From: an uncultured Clostridium sp.
GTDB taxonomy: Bacteria > Bacillota > Clostridia > Clostridiales > Clostridiaceae
DNA length: 51,645 nucleotides
Direction: 5' to 3'
NCBI GenBank assembly: GCA_903789665.1
Contig: CAIFEX010000024.1
Span: 1 to 51,645, forward strand
Below, piece after piece: positions 6,574-51,534 of this stretch; within the stretch, counting starts at the first letter, position 1, and each line of letters begins with the position of its first letter. The translations under genes were made by a program, and so were the position numbers. The notes beneath the pieces are model-generated. The model did no database searches and was not told the origin of the DNA. It worked only from the letters and a program-made list of their open reading frames with translations.

Positions 6574-6596
6574 AATTTGTAAATATATGAAGTTAT

Positions 6597-6818
6597 GATA
6601 GAAAGAAGTAATAAATTATATCAATAAGAGAAGCAGTGGCGGGTGCAAACTGTATGATAGAATTTATGAAATACATTCTTGAACTGCAGGCTGAAATCTT
6701 CAGTAAGCCGTGCCGTTTAACTTGCGTTAAAAGTAAGAGATAAACAGCAAAGTTTTGTTTTCAAAGTAGGGTGGTACCACGATTGAGTTTCGTCCCTTAA
6801 TCGCAGGTGCTTTTTTTA
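6597..6818 (+). ncRNA. T-box riboswitch, specifier probably UAC (Tyr)
   Basis: Stem I has AAGUAA on its 5' side and a distal GCAG...GGGUGCAAACUG element. Its 3' specifier strand is UGAA-A-UAC-A (codon at 6672-6674). The lower helix pairs AGAA with UUCU. The Ile T-box elsewhere in the window has the same spacing (UGAA-A-AUC-A), which supports UAC over the alternative AUA. The T-box motif AGGGUGGUACCACG is at 6768-6781. The terminator is unusual: GUACC and CGAUU, part of the T-box itself, pair with AAUCG and GGUGC ahead of seven U. It is upstream of the Na+/solute symporter gene. Confidence 0.85.
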
Positions 6819-6858
6819 TTCCCGCTTTAAAAATTTCAAAATTTGCCATTTGTTTAAT

Positions 6859-6907
6859 CAGGGTGGTACCACGACTTTTTCGTCCCTCGGCCAGGGACGT
6901 TTTTTTA
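6859..6907 (+). ncRNA. Second T-box antiterminator/terminator module without a stem I
   Basis: A second AGGGUGGUACCACG (6860-6873) is followed by CGUCCCU...AGGGACG and seven U, a canonical T-box terminator. Only about 40 nt separate it from the first terminator, which is too short for its own stem I and specifier. The symporter start codon follows 39 nt later. Confidence 0.8.
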
Positions 6908-6945
6908 TTATTTAATCAACAATAAATGAAGGAGATCTGTAAAAA

Positions 6946-8367
6946 ATGAATATATCATTGATAATCATAATTCTATATATATCTGCATTATTTATAATAA
7001 GCCTTTTTGCCCGAAAAAAAGCTATAAAGGGAGGCGAAAGTTATACCCTTGCAGGAAGGCAGCTCACCACCCCGCTTGTAACCTGTTCATTGATAGGACT
7101 CGCCATAGGCGGGGCTTCTACCATAGGCGTTGCCGAACAGGCTTACAGCATAGGATTATCCGCAGGCTGGTACAATGTAGCATGGGGTACCGGCGCCATT
7201 TTGATGGGACTCCTGGTAGCAGGGAAATACAGGAAATTCAATGTAGCCACCGTTCCAGAATTACTGGGAAAATTTTATGATAAAAAGGGAAAAACCGTCT
7301 GTGTCATATGCCAGATAATCATACTTGTGGTAATCATGTCACTGCAGTACATTGCCGGCGGATCCATCTTGTCTTCATTGCTTCCAGGAGTATTCACATT
7401 AAAAACAGGCATGGTGGTAAGTGCCTGTGTGTTTATAGGAATAACTTTCATAGGTGGAATGTGGTCTGCAGGACTCTGCAATACCTTTAATGTCCCTATA
7501 AAATATACAGGAATAATACTATGCACCGTTCTGGCAGTGGCCTCTGGAGGAGGATTTGAAAACATAAAACTCAAGCTTCCTCAAAATATAGATTATTTCA
7601 GCCCCGTAAACGGCACCAGCATATGGATAATTTTAAGCTGGTTTCTCATAATGATCACACAGGTTATGTCCATGCAGGGACCTGTGCAATTGGCTTTCGC
7701 TGCCAAAGATTCAAAGACTGCAAAAAAATCCTTTATAATAGCTGGTTTTCTCATGATTCCGATAGGATTTTTATGCGCAATAATAGGTATAGCAGCCAGA
7801 ACTGCCTTCCCCAATGTGAGCGGTACTCTGGCCCTGCCCAAGATGATATTGTCATTGAATCCCGTAGCTGCAGGCCTGACTCTTGCAGCTCTCTGGGCCG
7901 CAGATGTATCCACTGCCTGCAGCCTGCTTTTGGGGGCATCCACACTTTTTACACAGGACATATACAAATCATTTATAAATCCAGGGATGAAAGAGGAAAA
8001 TTCCATTATCATGAACAAGACATTTGTAATTTTAATAGGCATATTAACTTTTATACTAGCTTTGTCGATATCAGGTATATTAAAAGCTATATCGATAGGT
8101 TTGAGTTTAAGCACGGCTTTCACCATAGTGTTTCTGTTTACCGTATTTGCACCGAATTTATGTAGAAAAAGCTCTGCTTTCTATACTACTTTGACAGGCA
8201 TCACAGTGTTATTTTTATGGGAGCTCATACCTTCTTTCAGAATTTTTCCCCATGTGATATACATGGAATGGCTATCCTGTCTCTGTGTTTTCTTTTTAAT
8301 ATCATTGATTGACAAAAGAGCTATAAGCACAACTAAAATCTCCAAATCCATCAAAAATGTCATATAA
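6946..8367 (+). CDS. Sodium:solute symporter (SSS) family protein, candidate Tyr/aromatic amino acid transporter
   Basis: 473 residues with about 13 hydrophobic segments. The early segment carries YTLAGRQLTTPLVTCSLIGLAIGGAS, typical of the SSS/PutP superfamily (Na+ site residues in TM1 and a later ALWAADVSTACSLLLGAS segment corresponding to TM8). It acts in the cytoplasmic membrane as a Na+-coupled importer. The family gives no substrate, but the UAC T-box leader implies induction when tRNA-Tyr is uncharged, so tyrosine or an aromatic precursor is the leading inference. AAGGAGATCTGTAAAA precedes the ATG. It is a single-gene unit ended by a strong bidirectional hairpin. Confidence 0.88.
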   Translation: MNISLIIIILYISALFIISLFARKKAIKGGESYTLAGRQLTTPLVTCSLIGLAIGGASTIGVAEQAYSIGLSAGWYNVAWGTGAILMGLLVAGKYRKFNVATVPELLGKFYDKKGKTVCVICQIIILVVIMSLQYIAGGSILSSLLPGVFTLKTGMVVSACVFIGITFIGGMWSAGLCNTFNVPIKYTGIILCTVLAVASGGGFENIKLKLPQNIDYFSPVNGTSIWIILSWFLIMITQVMSMQGPVQLAFAAKDSKTAKKSFIIAGFLMIPIGFLCAIIGIAARTAFPNVSGTLALPKMILSLNPVAAGLTLAALWAADVSTACSLLLGASTLFTQDIYKSFINPGMKEENSIIMNKTFVILIGILTFILALSISGILKAISIGLSLSTAFTIVFLFTVFAPNLCRKSSAFYTTLTGITVLFLWELIPSFRIFPHVIYMEWLSCLCVFFLISLIDKRAISTTKISKSIKNVI

Positions 8368-8413: not shown

Positions 8414-9799
8414 CTAATCGACTATATCTCCCGGATTCAGAATTCCATTTGGATCAAATGCCTTTTTTATATTGTTCATAATTTCAATTTCCCTTTCAGT
8501 AAACTGAAGCGGCATATGTTTTTTTCTTGTCTTTCCGGTACCGTGCTCGGCAGTTATGGTACCTCCGTATTTCAGGGCAGTTTTGTACATCTTCTCTTTC
8601 AGTTCCTCATAGTATGAAGGCAGTCTGCCGTTTTCCCCCATGATAAAATTGTGAATATTTCCATCTGCAATATGTCCAAGAGATACTATATTGTTGTTAT
8701 ACTTCTCAGCCAATGCAGTTATATCGTCAAAGAAATCAGGCACGCTGGACGGTGGAACAGCTATATCAAGTGCATCCGATATATTGTCCTTATAAGGTTC
8801 ATAGGCATTGCTCCTTATTTCAAGGATGTTTCTCTGTTCTTTTGCAGTTTCCGCTATAACACTGTCCACTGAATTATATTTTTCACAAATCTCCACGATT
8901 CTTTCACTATTGGAATACAGTTCATCTTCAGTCGGCTCATCAAGCATAAATATGAGATCCACAGGGGCACTGTTGTCTACAGGCCATTTACTGCCAAGCT
9001 GATCTGCAGATTTTTTTGCCACAACCCTATCCATGTACTCCACAGCAAGAGGAGTAATGCCTTCCTGCAGTATTTTGGGAACTGAATCACAGGCTTCTCT
9101 CCTCGTATTAAATGAAACTATGAGAGTTCCAGTGTATTTGTTCTTTGCATAGAGTTTCAAGGTTGCCTTTGTAATAATTCCCAGGGTCCCTTCACTCCCA
9201 ATCATCATATGAAGCAGATCGTAGCCCATATTGTTCTTTATCAGTTTTCCGCCAAGAGTAACTATTTCGCCCGTCGGTAAAACCACTTCCACGGCTTTCA
9301 CATGGTTTCTCATAATTCCATGCTTTACAGCTTTCGTCCCGCCGGCATTCGTTGCAATCATACCACCTATCTGTGCCCCCTCATCTCCCGGGTGTATGGG
9401 GAAAAATAACTTGCCCTCACTTTTCAGTGCTTCCAGCAGATCTGCCAGAGTCACACCAGCTTCAACGGTTATCATCAAATTTTTTTCATCCAGCTCGACA
9501 ACCTTATTGAGCCTTTCAAGGGTTAAAACTATACCTGGTTTTATCGGTATGGCACCACCTACAACTCCCGTGCCGCCCCCTCTTGTAGTCACCGGAATCA
9601 GGTTTTTGTTTGCATATTTCAATATTTGGGATATTTCTTCCGGTGAAGCAGGTTTAACTACTACAGAATCCTCCGACGCTTCGGGTCTCAAAAGTGGTTC
9701 GGTTTCATCATAGAGATAACTTTGCATCTTGGACAGATCATCCAGCACCCAGTTCTCCCCTACAATTTGTTTTAAATTTCTGATTATTTCATCTTTCAT
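8414..9799 (-). CDS. FAD-binding 2-hydroxyacid dehydrogenase (GlcD/LctD-like), partner of EtfAB
   Basis: 461 residues. The FAD_binding_4 domain has PVTTRGGGTGVVGGAIP (about 70-86), HPGDEGAQIGGMIATNAGG and IGSEGTLGIITKATLKLY. The FAD-oxidase C domain has SLGHIADGNIHNF and TAEHGTGKTRKKHM, the substrate and metal residues of the D-lactate/glycolate dehydrogenase family. Last gene of the etfB-etfA operon (26 bp after etfA), the arrangement of the electron-bifurcating lactate dehydrogenase of Acetobacterium, in which NAD+ is reduced with lactate plus reduced ferredoxin. Here no lactate permease or lct regulator is present, and the operon is under two Leu T-boxes, so 2-hydroxyisocaproate is an alternative substrate. 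Start ATG 9799 has GAAGGGGG upstream. Confidence 0.88.
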   Translation of the reverse strand: MKDEIIRNLKQIVGENWVLDDLSKMQSYLYDETEPLLRPEASEDSVVVKPASPEEISQILKYANKNLIPVTTRGGGTGVVGGAIPIKPGIVLTLERLNKVVELDEKNLMITVEAGVTLADLLEALKSEGKLFFPIHPGDEGAQIGGMIATNAGGTKAVKHGIMRNHVKAVEVVLPTGEIVTLGGKLIKNNMGYDLLHMMIGSEGTLGIITKATLKLYAKNKYTGTLIVSFNTRREACDSVPKILQEGITPLAVEYMDRVVAKKSADQLGSKWPVDNSAPVDLIFMLDEPTEDELYSNSERIVEICEKYNSVDSVIAETAKEQRNILEIRSNAYEPYKDNISDALDIAVPPSSVPDFFDDITALAEKYNNNIVSLGHIADGNIHNFIMGENGRLPSYYEELKEKMYKTALKYGGTITAEHGTGKTRKKHMPLQFTEREIEIMNNIKKAFDPNGILNPGDIVD

Positions 9800-9825
9800 T
9801 ATCCATTTACCCCCTTCTATCAATA

Positions 9826-10812
9826 TTAGACTGCAGTTTTATTTTTGATCTCATCTATCAATTTAGGTATTATTTCATACATGTCCCCCACTATGCCATA
9901 ATCGGCCACATTGAATATCGGAGCCGAGGGATCCTCATTTATTGCCACTATGAACTCCGATTCCTTCATCCCTGCCAGATGCTGCGGCGCACCTGAAATT
10001 CCACATGCTATATACAATTTGGGTTTCACCCTGTTGCCACTGTACCCGACTTGAAAGTCCTTTGAAATAAATCCGTCATCTACAACGCTTCTGCTTGCAC
10101 CAACAAGTCCTCCCAGTAAATCCGCCAGCTCCTTAATCATTTTGAAATCCTCCGGCTTTTTCAACCCCTTTCCTGCTGCCACCACCACATTTGCCTCCGA
10201 GATATTGACTTCCTGATCCTTCAATTTACATATAACTTTCACCCTGGGTTTTTGAAGCTTTACCGCATTTATTTTCACAATTTCTCCGCTATTTTGCTCA
10301 TTTCTTTCTGCTTCGTCAAACTCTTTATACCTGACTGTAGACATCTGTGGATAAGTATCTGTTTTTATATGGGCCAGTATATTTTCACTAAAGGCAGGTC
10401 TTATCTGAACCAGTTTTTCGTCTTCATCTATTTTAAGTCCGGTACAATCTGCAGTAAGACCTGTATTTAATGCTGCCGCCAGTCTAGGTGCCAGTGATCT
10501 TCCAAGACTGGTAGCCCCTATAAGAAAGATCTCCGGTTTAATTTTATTGACGACCTGCTCAAGATTCATCTTGTATATTAATTCTTCAGGTCCGTCGAAT
10601 ACATCATCTTCTACGTAAAAGACCTTGTCCGCACCTCTGTATATCAACTCCTCAGCTTTTATTCCCCTTGGGCCGAGAAGTACACTGTATACCGGAACAC
10701 CCAATTTATCTGCAAGCTCCCTGGCTTTTCCGAGGAGCTCATAGCTCACCTTGTGTATATTTCCATTTTTCTGTTCTGCAAAAACCAGTACGCCGTTATA
10801 TTCCTTTTCCAT
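9826..10812 (-). CDS. etfA: Electron transfer flavoprotein alpha subunit
   Basis: 328 residues. N-terminal ETF domain (GVLVFAEQKNGNIHKVSYELL) and C-terminal FAD domain with GGLVGASRSVVDDGF, QVGYSGNRVKPKLYIACGIS and APIFNVADYGIVGD, which place the FAD. It has no extra N-terminal ferredoxin domain. It forms the EtfAB heterodimer that passes electrons between the dehydrogenase flavin, NAD and ferredoxin. ATG 10812 was chosen because AAGGTGG lies before it. The etfB stop is only 4 bp away, so the genes are translationally linked. Confidence 0.93.
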   Translation of the reverse strand: MEKEYNGVLVFAEQKNGNIHKVSYELLGKARELADKLGVPVYSVLLGPRGIKAEELIYRGADKVFYVEDDVFDGPEELIYKMNLEQVVNKIKPEIFLIGATSLGRSLAPRLAAALNTGLTADCTGLKIDEDEKLVQIRPAFSENILAHIKTDTYPQMSTVRYKEFDEAERNEQNSGEIVKINAVKLQKPRVKVICKLKDQEVNISEANVVVAAGKGLKKPEDFKMIKELADLLGGLVGASRSVVDDGFISKDFQVGYSGNRVKPKLYIACGISGAPQHLAGMKESEFIVAINEDPSAPIFNVADYGIVGDMYEIIPKLIDEIKNKTAV

Positions 10813-10816
10813 ATTA

Positions 10817-11617
10817 TCAGTCCACCACCTTTTTTTCTCTAAATATACCAGCAAGTCTCTCAACTGCCTGTGAAATATTTTCCCTGTAAATTTTCCCTTC
10901 CCGTTTTGCCGCCTGCGGTACTTCTATTTTTTTTACCTTTGTAGGAGAACCTTTAAAACCAATTTCGTTTTCACTAAGATTTCCCTCCAGATCCTTAAAT
11001 GTCATAACTTCTATTTCAGCTTTTCTCGCTTTCATCTTGTTTTTAAAAGACGGAAGTCTTGGAACATTTATGTCCTTTGTCACCGTAATAAGGGCCGGCA
11101 GTCTCATGCTTTTCAAATAAGTCCCCGCCCATATTTCAGAACGCACTTTGATTTCATTTTCGTCGACCCCTTCAATTTTACTTATATAACTTCCATGAGG
11201 AACATTTAAAAATTCCGCTATTTCAGGTCCAACTTGTCCTGTATCACCGTCCACAGTCTTCTCACCGGCAATTACAAGATCATACTTCCCTATCTTTTTA
11301 ATTGCACCTGACAATATAGTGGATGTCGCCCTGGTATCCGATCCACCAAATTTTATGTCGCTTACAAGCACTCCTTTTGAAGCTCCCCTTGCGATACATT
11401 CCCTTAAAGCATCTTTTGCACTCGGCGGCCCCATACTTACAGCCGTTATAGTGGTGGAATCAACCTTTTCACCAATCTGTACCGCCGCTTCCAGGGCGTT
11501 TAAATCAAAAGGATTGATCTCTGTACCTGCAGATTTACGATCCACCACTCCCCTTTCGCTGTCGAATTTCACTTTTTCCATATCCGGTACCTGTTTAATT
11601 AAAACTATTATGTTCAA
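10817..11617 (-). CDS. etfB: Electron transfer flavoprotein beta subunit
   Basis: 266 residues beginning MNIIVLIKQVPDMEKVKF, the standard EtfB start. The start is TTG 11617: GGAGGG lies 8 nt before it, whereas the ATG at 11632 is itself part of that ribosome binding site. The AMP/FAD-binding region has AGEKTVDGDTGQVGPEIAEFL, and the recognition-loop region LPALITVTKDINVPRLPSFK is intact. In bifurcating Etfs this subunit holds the second FAD. First gene of the Leu-T-box operon. Confidence 0.93.
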   Translation of the reverse strand: MNIIVLIKQVPDMEKVKFDSERGVVDRKSAGTEINPFDLNALEAAVQIGEKVDSTTITAVSMGPPSAKDALRECIARGASKGVLVSDIKFGGSDTRATSTILSGAIKKIGKYDLVIAGEKTVDGDTGQVGPEIAEFLNVPHGSYISKIEGVDENEIKVRSEIWAGTYLKSMRLPALITVTKDINVPRLPSFKNKMKARKAEIEVMTFKDLEGNLSENEIGFKGSPTKVKKIEVPQAAKREGKIYRENISQAVERLAGIFREKKVVD

Positions 11618-11639
11618 TGTATTACCCTCCATCTTTTTT

Positions 11640-11672
11640 ATACTGATAATGGTATTATACCATTATCAGTAT
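11640..11672 (-). promoter_or_regulatory. Perfect 33-bp palindrome before etfB, possible operator over an internal -10
   Basis: Sixteen bases on each side of one central base are exact inverse complements: ATACTGATAATGGTAT on the left and its complement on the right. It is placed between the second T-box terminator and the etfB ribosome binding site. Read on the minus strand the centre is GGTATAATACC, which includes TATAAT. No T-run follows on the minus strand, so it is not an obvious terminator. TGGT...ACCA half sites resemble operators of FadR-type GntR regulators, but the spacing differs. Confidence 0.6.
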
Positions 11673-11702
11673 ATTATTTAGAAAATTTTTCAAATTTGGC
11701 AT

Positions 11703-11912
11703 ATAAAAAAACAGGCTCCTCCTTGGGGCGAGAAGTCTGTTCGCGGTACCACCCAATTTTATACTCAATTAAATAACGGTTTTTAACCGGTAAAGCCTAC
11801 TTGTAATTTCAGCTTCCAGCTCCAGGACGAGTTCAGCAAACTCTACTTACAGGCTTTCACCAAAAAACCTGCTCTCTTTGAAATAGAAATTATACCTACT
11901 GCTTCCCTTCAC
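11703..11912 (-). ncRNA. T-box riboswitch 2 of the tandem pair, specifier CUC (Leu)
   Basis: On the minus strand stem I has AGCAGUAGGU and the specifier strand CUGAA-CUC-G (codon at 11829-11831). The GAGAGCAGG...GGUGAAAGCCUG distal element follows family form. The T-box AAUUGGGUGGUACCGCGAA is followed by a terminator pairing AACAGACTTCTC with GAGGAGCCTGTT and seven T (11703-11741). It ends about 90 bp before etfB. Confidence 0.88.
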
Positions 11913-11941
11913 AGCTTGTCAATATCTATATAAGTTAATAT

Positions 11942-12147
11942 AAAAAAACAGATTTCTCTATGGGGCGAGAAATCTGTTCGCGGTACCACCCAATTTTGTA
12001 CTCAATCCATTAACGGCATTTGTCGGCACAGCCTACTGTTATTTCAGCCTGCAACTCAAAGGTGAGTTCAACACGCATTATTTACGGTCCTTCCACCTTC
12101 TCCCGCTCTCTCTAAAATACATGACATGTTTACTATTCCTTATCTCA
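11942..12147 (-). ncRNA. T-box riboswitch 1 of the tandem pair, specifier CUC (Leu)
   Basis: On the minus strand the specifier loop has AAUAGUAA opposite UGAA-CUC-A (codon at 12064-12066), between helices AAGG/CCUU and ACAUG/CGUGU. The T-box motif lies at 11976-11991, and a perfect terminator pairs AACAGATTTCTC with GAGAAATCTGTT, then T-run. It is a complete element in series with the next one, with no promoter between them. Confidence 0.88.
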
Positions 12148-12176
12148 GTTTTTATATCAACTTTAAATTATCATTA

Positions 12177-12205
12177 AGTATAATATAGATTATTTTCAAT
12201 GTCAA
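12177..12205 (-). promoter_or_regulatory. Strong SigA-type promoter of the tandem Leu T-box transcript
   Basis: TTGACA (12200-12205), a 17-bp spacer and TATACT (12177-12182) on the minus strand, about 30 bp before stem I. Confidence 0.75.
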
Positions 12206-12254
12206 TATATATTTAAAAAAATTACAGGGCAAACGCATGAAAAGTAATATTTTA

Positions 12255-12623
12255 TTACTCAAGGACTGTTATTTTTCCCTTCTGCTCGCTTTTCCTTATA
12301 GCTAAACCTATGCTTTTTAAATTTTTCCACTCTTTTCTCGTACTAAGCCAGTCTATATCTTCTGTAACGTAATATTCTCTCGTGTCCCTCCTGCTGTGTC
12401 CTTTGTCAAAGGATCTGGTACAGCTGTATGAAATATCTTTAAATCCCGTTTGAAGAGTCCAAATCCACCGCATATAATAACTGATAAAATTATTATATCC
12501 AGAATAATCTTTTGTCTGATATTCTTCAATTAAAACGTCCCCCCAAATATTATAAATATTAACATTTAAATTATAACATAATTTCCTATCTCTCAAATGT
12601 CTTGTCAAATCAAAAGCCTCCAT
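12255..12623 (-). pseudogene. ISAs1-family transposase remnant
   Basis: A 122-codon open frame whose second half (SCTRSFDKGHSRRDTREYYV, then TEDIDWLSTRKEWKNLKSIG and GKITVLE) matches the middle of ISAs1/H-repeat DDE transposases, just before the usual RYYISSL block. The frame stops exactly there with two stop codons, and the first 60 residues do not match. Both the N-terminal DDE part and the C-terminal part are missing. No inverted repeats are visible. The gene is dead. Confidence 0.65.
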
Positions 12624-48401: not shown

Positions 48402-48523
48402 GGTAGCAGAGTAAATATTATGCATTAAGTGTTAGAGAATGGGAGGTTGTCTCTAAACGAAAAGCTTGAATATTTTATACTATTGATTTAAAGCTTATGA
48501 TATGATATTGCTTCCGCTGTTAC
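48402..48523 (+). ncRNA. Tetrahydrofolate (THF) riboswitch
   Basis: The conserved blocks of the folT-type THF aptamer are visible in order: UGCAUUAAGUGU, GAAUGGGAGGUUGU, AAACGAAAAGCUU and the closing CUUCCGCUGUUA, with UAGCAG/CUGUUA as P1. It sits before the folate S component gene. Confidence 0.8.
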
Positions 48524-48595: not shown

Positions 48596-48657
48596 ATGAA
48601 AAGTTCAATTAGCCTTGTGTAAAATAATTTCAAATACGTACACGGGAGGTAATGAAC

Positions 48658-49500: not shown

Positions 49501-51174
49501 CTACTTTATGATTTCCGTTATAGCAGCACCTGGAGGAACAATTGGGTGAACTCTTTCATTCCTGTTTATGTTGCATTCCACTATGACGGGCTTATTTAAG
49601 TTCAGTGCCTTCATCAAGACTTTCTCAACTTGCTCGTTAGATTCTATTTCAAAGGTTTCTATACCATAGGCCTCCCCCAATTTCATAAAATCAACTTCTT
49701 GTCCAAGCTCTGTACTTGAAAATCTCCTGTTATAAAACATGTCCTGCCATTGATATACCATGCCTAGAGCATGGTTATTCAAAAGCAATTGCACAATAGG
49801 CAATTTATATTTTGCAACAGTGGCAAGTTCCACCGAATTCATTTTAAAGCTGCCGTCTCCCGCCACATTTATTACTTTTTTCCCGGGATTTCCTATAGAC
49901 GCCCCTATAGATGCCCCCAATCCATAACCCATAGTTCCGAGCCCGCCTGAAGATACGAACTTTCTTGGTTTTAAAAATTTAAAATATTGGGCAGTCCAAA
50001 TTTGGTTTTGTCCTACTTCTGTAGTTATTATGCAGTCTCCCTTGGTGATTTTATAGAGGCAGTCCATTATATGCTTGGGACTTAATTTGCAGTCTTCTCC
50101 AAAAGGATCACTTTCCCCATCTTTCCACTGTTTTATCCTATTCATCCACTCCTTATGGCTATTATATTTTACCTTTTTATTTATTATTTCAAGTACTTCT
50201 TTCACATCCCCTTTTATGGAAATATCTTCACTTATATTTTTGCCAAATTCTCTTGAATCTATGTCTATATGAACTATTTTAGCCTTTGGGGCAAATTCCT
50301 CCACTTTGCCTATGACCCTGTCACTGAACCTCGCTCCTATAGCTACAAGCAAATCGCAATTGTTCACGGCATAGTTCGAACATGGACTGCCGTGCATACC
50401 TACCATTCCCATGTAATTTTTATGATTTCCCGGAAAGGCACCAATTCCCATAAGAGAACAGGTAATAGGCGAATCTATTTTTTCAACCAGTTTTACAAGT
50501 TCTTTGTATGCTCCTGATATGACCGAGCCGCCCCCTGAATATATAACCGGTTTTTTACTGCTATCTATCATTTCAACTGCTTCATCAATCTTGTCTATAA
50601 ATCCTTCCTGACTAAAGTTTGTCTTATTTTTAGATACAGTTAAGGTACTCATTTTGGGTTTATATTCAACTTCCGATTTTTGTATATCTTTAGGTATATC
50701 CACGACCACAGGCCCTGGTCTTCCACTAACGGCTACCTGAAATGCTTCTCTTACAATATTTACTAAATTATTCACATCTTTAACTATATAGTTCTTTTTA
50801 GTTATAGATGAAGTGATGTTTCTGATGTCTACTTCCTGAAAGGAATCCTTCCCCAATAAATTCAGCGGCACCTGACCGGTAAATACCACAATGGGGACAG
50901 AATCCCTGTAAGCTGTGGCAATTCCAGTTACCGTATTAGTTGCACCTGGACCTGAAGTCACGATTACCACCCCCACCTTTCCTGTAGATCTGGCATATCC
51001 ATCTGCAGCATGAGTAGCCCCTTGCTCATGAGCAGTCATTATATGAGTTATACCCTTTGAATCATATAGTGCATCATATATCGGAAGGACGGTACCTCCA
51101 GGATATCCAAAGACAGTATCTACTCCCTGTTCTTTCATACATTCCAGCAGCACTTCTGCACCTTTTAATTTCAT
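49501..51174 (-). CDS. ilvB: Acetolactate synthase large (catalytic) subunit
   Basis: 557 residues of the acetohydroxyacid synthase family. Catalytic Glu is in TAHEQGATHAADGYAR; FAD/quinone region ITSSITKKNYIVKDV; TPP-Mg motif VAGDGSFKMNSVELATV with LLLNNHALGMVYQWQ. It makes acetolactate or acetohydroxybutyrate for Val/Leu/Ile synthesis. No ilvN small subunit is next to it in the window. AGGGGG about 11 nt before ATG. Controlled by an Ile T-box. Confidence 0.94.
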   Translation of the reverse strand: MKLKGAEVLLECMKEQGVDTVFGYPGGTVLPIYDALYDSKGITHIMTAHEQGATHAADGYARSTGKVGVVIVTSGPGATNTVTGIATAYRDSVPIVVFTGQVPLNLLGKDSFQEVDIRNITSSITKKNYIVKDVNNLVNIVREAFQVAVSGRPGPVVVDIPKDIQKSEVEYKPKMSTLTVSKNKTNFSQEGFIDKIDEAVEMIDSSKKPVIYSGGGSVISGAYKELVKLVEKIDSPITCSLMGIGAFPGNHKNYMGMVGMHGSPCSNYAVNNCDLLVAIGARFSDRVIGKVEEFAPKAKIVHIDIDSREFGKNISEDISIKGDVKEVLEIINKKVKYNSHKEWMNRIKQWKDGESDPFGEDCKLSPKHIMDCLYKITKGDCIITTEVGQNQIWTAQYFKFLKPRKFVSSGGLGTMGYGLGASIGASIGNPGKKVINVAGDGSFKMNSVELATVAKYKLPIVQLLLNNHALGMVYQWQDMFYNRRFSSTELGQEVDFMKLGEAYGIETFEIESNEQVEKVLMKALNLNKPVIVECNINRNERVHPIVPPGAAITEIIK

Positions 51175-51292
51175 AATAAATAGCCCCCTAATTGTTAATT
51201 TTTTAACATAGTTATTTTAACTTCTATCAAACTAACTGATAATTCTGTAAATTTTTAATACCATTTTTTAAAAACTTTTAAAATAAAGTATA

Positions 51293-51503
51293 AAAAAAGC
51301 CACACTACTCACCCGGGGCGAGAGTCTGGTTCGCGGTACCACCCAATTTTTACTTGATTCAAATAACGACCTTGCCGGCGCAGCTTACTATTGTTCATAT
51401 TCAGCTTACAACTCAAGGGTGATTTTCAATAATCCACAATTCATGGGCTTTCACCTTTTCCCACTCTCTTTGGAAATTTGAATCATTTACTCTTCCCTAT
51501 CAT
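51293..51503 (-). ncRNA. T-box riboswitch with specifier AUC (Ile)
   Basis: On the minus strand AGAGUAAAUG is the 5' specifier-loop side and AUUGAA-A-AUC-A the 3' side (codon at 51421-51423). Lower helix AGGG/CCCU. T-box motif GGGUGGUACCGCGAA lies at 51329-51344, followed by a terminator with seven T. Confidence 0.88.
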
Positions 51504-51534
51504 AGTCTTTATGTTTAAAATTTTATTATATATG

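What the first reader, a model, noticed from the sequence alone, without database searches (positions are those of the whole stretch)
8414..12205. Two tandem Leu T-boxes control an etfB-etfA-2-hydroxyacid dehydrogenase operon
Both leaders read CUC in the specifier position and both have complete terminators, in series from one promoter. Etf-dehydrogenase operons of this type are known for lactate, which has no link to leucine. Leucine starvation control would fit an enzyme that oxidises 2-hydroxyisocaproate (the leucine fermentation product) to 2-oxoisocaproate, so that leucine can be recovered by transamination. I know of no described Etf-bifurcating enzyme under Leu T-box control. This is the strongest candidate here for an undescribed system.
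Basis: partly seen in the sequence, partly recalled or inferred. Interest (0 to 1): 0.75.

Follow-up and report, generated by a model that had tools for sequence, protein, structure and literature searches.

The report
Leucine-starvation switch on hydroxyacid-oxidising enzyme operon
A Clostridium operon for a flavin enzyme related to lactate dehydrogenase sits behind an RNA leucine sensor copied from the leucine-synthesis operon, which suggests that the enzyme recovers amino acids from their hydroxy-acid forms.

Summary
Two T-boxes in series (window 11958-12155 and 11721-11921, minus strand), both with specifier CUC (Leu), a strong promoter and two terminators precede etfB-etfA-glcD. (1) Promoter plus both T-boxes (505 bp, 11703-12207) are identical to the leader of this genome's own leuACDB operon; two sister species keep a single Leu T-box at this place. 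(2) T-box control of this GlcD family is conserved: each of the 10 genus genomes (13 searched) with the operon has one, and orthologues and paralogues carry Leu, Ile or Phe specifiers that largely follow the GlcD tree. (3) The genome has a separate lactate operon, and this GlcD differs from LctD at the side-chain pocket: one residue is Ala in Leu-labelled, Ile in Ile-labelled rows, Glu in LctD. Best reading: Etf-linked (R)-2-hydroxyacid dehydrogenases that turn 2-hydroxyisocaproate (and Ile/Phe equivalents) into oxo acids for transamination when the matching tRNA is uncharged. Substrate, direction and electron bifurcation are inferred; EtfA lacks the LctC-type N-terminal extension. The listings and passages I saw describe no such system, but two main T-box surveys were not held.

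The parts
12177..12205 (-). promoter-like site TTGACA-17-TATACT
   Evidence: 11 of 12 consensus bases
11958..12155 (-). first T-box leader, specifier CUC (Leu) at 12066-12064
   Evidence: RF00230 110.7 bits
11946..11979 (-). terminator of first T-box, 13-pair stem then U run
11721..11921 (-). second T-box leader, specifier CUC (Leu) at 11831-11829
   Evidence: RF00230 124.6 bits
11709..11742 (-). terminator of second T-box
11703..12207 (-). 505-bp block (promoter through last U run) identical to the leader of leuA-leuC-leuD-leuB at G000:C7:31377-31881
11639..11673 (.). 35-nt near-perfect palindrome between leader and etfB; single copy in the genome, not seen in the relatives held
10817..11617 (-). 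etfB (TTG start after GGAGGG); b-FAD motif DGDTGQVG
9826..10812 (-). etfA, 328 aa, no LctC-type N-terminal extension
8414..9799 (-). glcD/lctD-type FAD-dependent (R)-2-hydroxyacid dehydrogenase, ATG start

Best explanation
When tRNA-Leu is uncharged it binds both T-boxes, each forms its antiterminator, and RNA polymerase reads through both terminators into etfB-etfA-glcD. Two switches in series should make the response steep, and the identical leader ties the operon to leuACDB. The enzyme oxidises the (R)-2-hydroxy acid of leucine, 2-hydroxyisocaproate, to 2-oxoisocaproate and passes the electrons to EtfAB; an aminotransferase then makes leucine. Related operons and paralogues do the same for isoleucine (2-hydroxy-3-methylvalerate) and phenylalanine (phenyllactate), each under the matching T-box. 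Shown here by sequence: T-boxes, specifiers, promoter-like site, terminators, copied leader, conservation, specifier diversity, pocket residues. Inferred: tRNA response, substrate, direction of reaction, electron acceptor.
For: Two complete CUC T-boxes. Exact 505-bp copy of the leuACDB leader; each T-box is 82-85% identical to the corresponding leu T-box of two sister species but 66-71% identical to the sisters' own etf leader, so the leu leader is the donor. T-box before etfBA-glcD in each of the 10 genus genomes that have the operon (13 searched): Leu in 4, Ile in 6. Further glcD units: Leu in L101-L103, L211 and, below the gathering score, L150; Ile in L131 and L138; Phe in L104, L155, L164, L184. 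The labels need 2 changes on the tree, the least possible, against 9.3 in shuffles. Separate lactate operon with LctP and lactate racemase in the same genome. Pocket: mouse LDHD, more efficient with 2-hydroxyisocaproate than with lactate, has Val101 and Ser365 (PMC10589216, passages); here Val79 and Ala343; A. woodii LctD has Leu80 and Glu344 (PMC9232219, passages); residue 343 is Ala in 8 of 8 Leu-labelled and Ile in 8 of 8 Ile-labelled tree rows. Two genes of the aminotransferase family that includes branched-chain aminotransferases (PF01063).
Against: No substrate, expression or binding data. Only 20 of the 83 GlcD rows in the tree carry a T-box label; the sister group L105-L112 has none beside glcD. 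Phe labels sit at two distant places in the tree, and the Phe rows differ at residue 343 (Gly in L104, Ala in the other three). No aminotransferase gene in the operon. The genome also has leuACDB. A weak promoter-like site lies after the second terminator. Pocket enrichment is post hoc: 4 of 7 fixed Leu/Ile differences lie within 2 residues of a pocket position (p 0.0013), 4 of 16 non-overlapping columns (p 0.038), and exact pocket positions 1 of 7 (p 0.14). Many labelled rows are from near-identical species, which inflates the tree statistic.
Confidence: 0.6

Rival explanations
1. It is an ordinary Etf-linked (R)-lactate dehydrogenase; branched-chain amino acid starvation induces it to supply pyruvate for acetolactate and related precursors.
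For: Best solved relatives are A. woodii LctD and LctB; branched-chain amino acid synthesis consumes pyruvate; Leu and Ile T-boxes both fit; G003, G004 and G011 have no 37-39% LctD-like protein, so the T-box type might serve lactate there.
Against: Phe T-boxes on L104, L155, L164, L184; this genome has lctP-larA-etfB-etfA-lctD elsewhere; pocket differs from LctD; one genome holds an Ile-controlled and a Leu-controlled paralogue (L096 and L103, both G005).
Confidence: 0.13
2. The complex oxidises another 2-hydroxy acid (2-hydroxyglutarate, malate, glycolate) and the T-box is only a general amino acid stress signal.
For: The family includes such enzymes; NCBIfam's best match is GlcD, below its cut-off.
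Against: The specifiers seen on glcD units are Leu, Ile and Phe, all with hydrophobic side chains; the side-chain pocket is Val/Tyr/Ala/Phe here, whereas D2HGDH has a charged one (PMC10589216, passages).
Confidence: 0.1
3. The complex works mainly as a redox valve, for example reducing 2-oxo acids or cycling them with an NAD(P)H 2-oxoacid reductase.
For: A PanE-family gene follows glcD in L096 and an Ldh_2-family gene precedes glcD in L109; a lactate cycle of this type was proposed for C. ljungdahlii (PMC5640608, passages).
Against: Consuming 2-oxo acids during starvation for the matching amino acid would be counter-productive; neither neighbour gene was found beside the window operon.
Confidence: 0.07
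4. The identical leader before etfB is an assembly error.
For: Two copies identical over 505 bp in a 63-contig draft; reads not available.
Against: The flanks diverge at both ends of the block; a wrong pairing of flanks would still leave this block before etfB; two sister species have a Leu T-box there anyway.
Confidence: 0.05

Closest known systems
Acetobacterium woodii Ldh-EtfAB (LctBCD, 7QH2)
   Same: etfB, etfA and dehydrogenase subunits; His/His/Glu metal site, Arg and catalytic His conserved; EtfB b-FAD motif, EtfA Arg205 and Asp189 equivalents conserved by alignment
   Different: EtfA lacks the N-terminal extension; EtfB Arg87 equivalent is Ile; RPAFGGN is RPAFSEN; side-chain pocket V/Y/A/F instead of L/L/E/Y; T-box control
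Tandem Leu T-box of leu operons
   Same: promoter plus two CUC T-boxes; identical to this genome's own leuACDB leader; tandem CUC T-boxes also before leuA in L222-L227
   Different: controls a flavoprotein dehydrogenase; PMC12452182 (passages) lists tandem T-boxes at leu and ilv genes, and the words lactate, electron transfer and FAD do not occur in its main text
Mouse LDHD, general D-2-hydroxyacid dehydrogenase
   Same: same enzyme family; Val101 equals Val79 here, small residue at Ser365/Ala343; accepts D-2-hydroxyisocaproate (PMC10589216, passages; alignment)
   Different: mitochondrial enzyme, not part of a bacterial Etf operon, no amino acid control (recalled)
C. ljungdahlii lctP-larA-lut operon (PMC5640608, passages)
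   Same: Etf plus candidate (R)-lactate dehydrogenase
   Different: has lactate transport and racemase genes; I take it to be the 37-39% identical paralogue type, which I checked only in G000

Membership tests
T-box riboswitch (RF00230) | Rfam model score over gathering threshold | tested here: met
   124.6 and 110.7 bits, threshold 93
T-box riboswitch (RF00230) | specifier codon in stem I, UGGN antiterminator and terminator | tested here: met
   CUC, GGUGGUACC and two terminator folds
T-box riboswitch (RF00230) | read-through on uncharged tRNA-Leu | not testable with these tools
   needs experiment
Leucine T-box regulon | leader shared with leucine genes | tested here: met
   505-bp exact copy of the leuACDB leader
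Ldh-EtfAB (LctBCD) confurcating lactate dehydrogenase | LctD catalytic and metal residues | tested here: met
   R329, H376, H383, E418, H419
Ldh-EtfAB (LctBCD) confurcating lactate dehydrogenase | EtfA N-terminal Fe/S extension, needed for Fd:lactate:NAD activity in A. woodii (PMC9232219, passages) | tested here: not met
   window EtfA residue 5 aligns with LctC residue 71 and CarE residue 68
Ldh-EtfAB (LctBCD) confurcating lactate dehydrogenase | EtfB NAD-site residues R87, F89, G91 (PMC9232219, passages) | tested here: not met
   I, F, G here; Arg is present in L098 and L100
Ldh-EtfAB (LctBCD) confurcating lactate dehydrogenase | lactate as substrate | not testable with these tools
   pocket residues differ
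Bifurcating Etf | b-FAD motif in EtfB (DGDTxQVG) and EtfA Arg next to b-FAD | tested here: met
   DGDTGQVG and IRPAF
Bifurcating Etf | bifurcation or confurcation activity | not testable with these tools
   needs enzymology

The most novel reading that the evidence does not exclude
A family of Etf-coupled (R)-2-hydroxyacid dehydrogenases in Clostridia forms an amino acid salvage route: each paralogue is specialised for the hydroxy acid of one amino acid (Leu, Ile, Phe), is switched by the T-box for that amino acid, and can change T-box specifier and pocket residue together in evolution; in this genome the leucine version was recently put under an exact copy of the leucine-synthesis leader.
Probability: 0.45. 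Interest if true: 0.75.

Novelty: new variant of a known kind. Interest (0 to 1): 0.62.

Why it matters
Genes of this type tend to be annotated as glycolate oxidase or lactate dehydrogenase (recalled practice). If the reading is right, T-box specifiers predict the substrate of an enzyme family without an assay, reveal a salvage route from hydroxy acids (which lactic acid bacteria and amino acid fermenters are known to release; recalled) back to amino acids, and correct metabolic models of acetogens and chain elongators. The exact copied leader is also a very fresh case of a complete riboswitch cassette placed before a new operon.

Tried and rejected
Considered and set aside: lactate-only function (see rivals); 3-isopropylmalate as the substrate (a leuB-type gene stands in the leu operon); a leader that merely resembles the leu leader, or an independent tandem (it is identical over 505 bp). 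Continuing gene conversion, rather than one fresh copy, could also keep the two leaders identical; I cannot separate the two. The palindrome at 11639-11673 is single copy in the genome and absent from the other loci held; left unexplained. IS-mediated transfer of the leader: a weak ISAs1-family match (33.9 bits, cut-off 70) lies upstream; a 45-50 bp end that recurs at three other places stops 17 bp before the copied block, and one of those places is just upstream of a T-box with specifier UGG, but nothing shows that it carried the leader. Pfam gave no name for the gene between etfA and glcD in L132 and L136 or before etfB in L155 and L164, nor NCBIfam for L136; 'YkvI-like' in my notes is recollection. 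Structure prediction and fold search were not run; without ligand they would not settle the substrate.

Literature: listings (0 papers; 6 papers, one opened, where T-box occurs only in the reference list; 0; 13, two opened; 7, none opened; 6, one already opened; 441, 12 listed, none opened; 2, none opened; 14, 10 listed, none opened); passages of PMC3766115 and PMC2494555. In what I saw there is no T-box-controlled Etf or 2-hydroxyacid dehydrogenase operon. Vitreschak 2008 and Gutierrez-Preciado 2009 are not held, supplements were not available, and T-box databases were not searched, so it may be listed there.

Rows dropped: the tree used 83 of the 85 GlcD pieces; L185 (distant) and one piece under 400 aa (L150) were left out. 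L145 and L162 were left out beforehand as repeats of L108 and L113, and L121-L129 as repeats of L092-L107; L214-L221 were not added. The first T-box scan of L121-L185 was by regular expression; a profile scan of 113 loci, repeats included, added L150. Loci cut by contig ends may hide further T-boxes.
Full report
Observation. Rfam finds two T-box leaders in series on the minus strand, 11958-12155 and 11721-11921, both over the gathering score. Both read GAA-CUC, a leucine codon. I checked the register on T-boxes of tRNA-ligase genes of the same genome: pheS reads UUC, serS UCC, ileS AUC, alaS GCU and leuS CUU (genes named). The best promoter-like site (11 of 12 consensus bases) lies at 12205-12177 and none lies between the two T-boxes; the scan gave 10 sites against 5.3 by chance, among them a 9-of-12 site at 11702-11673, after the second terminator, that would bypass the switches if it were used. 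Both terminators fold better than shuffles (z -4.74 and -2.44). The genes that follow are etfB, etfA and a GlcD/LctD-type dehydrogenase.

The leader is a copy. The genome gives 31 T-box matches, 25 over the gathering score; two on contig C7 have the same scores as these two. Contig C7 carries the same leader in front of leuA-leuC-leuD-leuB (leuA named, the others by eye from their translations). The leaders are identical over 505 bp, window 11703-12207 against C7 31377-31881, from the -35 box to the last U run; beyond both ends the sequences diverge. Of eight further tandem T-box loci that I fetched from the genus, six are CUC pairs before leuA (L222-L227) and two are AUC pairs without a leu gene match (L228, L229). 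The first T-box of the window is 83-85% identical to the first leu T-box of G002 and G007 and the second 82-83% identical to their second, whereas both are 66-71% identical to the single T-box before etfB in those species. The upstream neighbour gene is conserved in G007 (76% over 1112 bp). So an older single Leu T-box was most likely replaced in place by a copy of the leu leader, so recently that no base differs, unless gene conversion keeps the two alike. A weak ISAs1-family match and a repeated end stop 17 bp upstream of the block; whether they took part is unknown. The assembly is a draft of 63 contigs and I could not see reads, so a long read across the junctions is desirable.

Conservation in the genus. 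Of 13 genomes searched, 10 have an EtfB about 70% identical or more beside a GlcD of 72% or more. Each of the 10 has a T-box over the gathering score upstream of etfB. The specifier is CUC (Leu) in G000, G002, G007 and G010, and AUC (Ile) in G003, G004, G005, G006, G008 and G011. G005, G006 and G008 also have a glcD without etf genes nearby under a Leu T-box (L103, L101, L102), so one genome holds an Ile-controlled and a Leu-controlled paralogue. G010 has such a glcD under a Phe (UUC) T-box (L104).

Wider survey. One scan of the genome collection gave 65 loci; a search of 225 genomes of the order found 19 with a GlcD match at E <= 1e-145. T-boxes were sought by pattern, by a profile on 113 loci and with Rfam on selected loci. 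Further T-box-led glcD units: L211 (Leu, with etfBA); L131 and L138 from Oscillospiraceae MAGs (tandem Ile, directly before glcD); L155, L164 and L184 (UBA6113 and two Sedimentibacter; Phe, before a gene without Pfam match where tested, then etfB, etfA and glcD); and L150 (Leu, 73.3 bits, below the gathering score, glcD frame interrupted). Together 9 Leu, 8 Ile and 4 Phe units among 84 GlcD rows (83 of the tree plus L150). L212 keeps an antiterminator but no recognisable stem I.

Tree. In a maximum-likelihood tree of 83 GlcD rows (20 with a T-box label) the three labels need 2 changes among labelled rows, the least possible, against a mean of 9.3 in shuffles. Near-identical species make any label cluster, and the 63 unlabelled rows are not counted, so this overstates the case: the Phe rows sit at two distant places with unlabelled rows between them. 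The eight Ile rows form one group (100/99), including the two Oscillospiraceae rows, which suggests transfer between families together with Ile control. The Leu rows fall in two places: six in one group of seven, and two (L097, L211) at the base of the Ile group, which suggests a Leu to Ile switch on one branch.

Pocket. [quoted passage not shown] PMC9232219 (passages) lists Leu80, Arg328, Leu332, Glu344, Asp346, His377, His384, Tyr386, Glu422 and His423 for A. woodii LctD. By the alignments (numbering worked out by hand) the window enzyme has Val79, Tyr333, Ala343 and Phe385 at the LDHD side-chain positions, where LctD has Leu80, Leu332, Glu344 and Tyr386. Catalytic and metal positions are kept. 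Between the eight Leu and eight Ile rows 7 of 461 columns are fixed differently; 4 of these (81, 343, 344, 378) lie within two residues of a pocket position (p 0.0013; the margin was chosen after the fact), 4 of 16 columns that merely do not overlap (p 0.038), and only 343 is a pocket residue itself (p 0.14). Residue 343 is Ala in the Leu rows, Ile in the Ile rows, Gly in L104 and the T-box-free sister group, Ala in the Sedimentibacter Phe group, Ser at the LDHD position and Glu in LctD.

Lactate is served elsewhere in this genome. Contig C13 has a lactate permease, a nickel-dependent lactate racemase, etfB, etfA and an lctD-like gene in one cluster, which resembles the C. ljungdahlii operon described in PMC5640608 (passages). 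A GlcD of 37-39% identity, the level of the C13 protein, occurs in 10 of the 13 genus genomes; G003, G004 and G011 lack it and have a T-box-led and a T-box-free member of the present family. I checked the lactate context only in G000.

Electron transfer. The EtfB motif for the bifurcating FAD and the EtfA Arg and Asp of LctC are kept, but EtfA lacks the N-terminal extension of LctC and CarE; deletion of the Fe/S part in A. woodii drops Fd:lactate:NAD activity from 12.3 to 0.1 (PMC9232219, passages). The NAD-site Arg87 of LctB is Ile here, though Arg in L098 and L100. Pfam named no ferredoxin domain in the longer C13 EtfA either. Whether this complex bifurcates is open.

Model. Uncharged tRNA-Leu opens both T-boxes; EtfAB-GlcD is made together with LeuACDB; (R)-2-hydroxyisocaproate is oxidised to 2-oxoisocaproate, the direct precursor of leucine, and an aminotransferase (two PF01063 genes in the genome) completes leucine. 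Ile and Phe versions do the same for their acids. The T-boxes, the copy and the co-distribution of specifier and GlcD group are shown; the chemistry is inferred.

Known and new. PMC2494555 (passages) already concluded that T-boxes can be duplicated and inserted before operons of related function and can change specificity, so the evolutionary process is known. PMC12452182 (passages) lists tandem T-boxes at leu and ilv genes. In the listings and passages seen no T-box before an Etf or 2-hydroxyacid dehydrogenase operon appeared; most listed papers were not opened, two main T-box surveys are not held and T-box databases were not available. I therefore call it a new variant of a known kind.

Noticed in passing
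window 6586-8367: A Tyr (UAC) T-box with a second antiterminator motif at 6862 precedes a sodium:solute symporter gene convergent with glcD; the pair is also in L092, L093, L101-L103, and L211 has three antiterminator motifs. It may import an aromatic amino or hydroxy acid.
   Followed up: partly
window 11639-11673: 35-nt near-perfect palindrome just upstream of the etfB ribosome-binding site, single copy in the genome and absent from the other loci held.
   Followed up: partly
window 12219-12623: Weak ISAs1-family remnant whose 45-50 bp end recurs at C3, C29 and C39; on C3 it also lies just upstream of a T-box (specifier UGG, Trp).
   Followed up: partly
window 49501-51512: T-box with specifier AUC (Ile) before an acetolactate synthase large subunit gene.
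   Followed up: no
window 48405-48521: THF riboswitch upstream of the 265-aa reading frame at 48652.
   Followed up: no
L212:2804-2843: T-box antiterminator and terminator before glcD without a recognisable stem I, so apparently a degraded T-box.
   Followed up: partly
L132, L135, L136, L140 between etfA and glcD; L155, L164, L184 before etfB: A 380-415 aa hydrophobic protein (by eye) is encoded with the Etf and GlcD genes; no Pfam match in the four tested, L132, L136, L155, L164. Possible transporter.
   Followed up: partly
L096:5935-6837: PanE/ApbA-family gene right after the Ile-controlled glcD; some members of that family are D-2-hydroxyacid dehydrogenases (recalled).
   Followed up: partly
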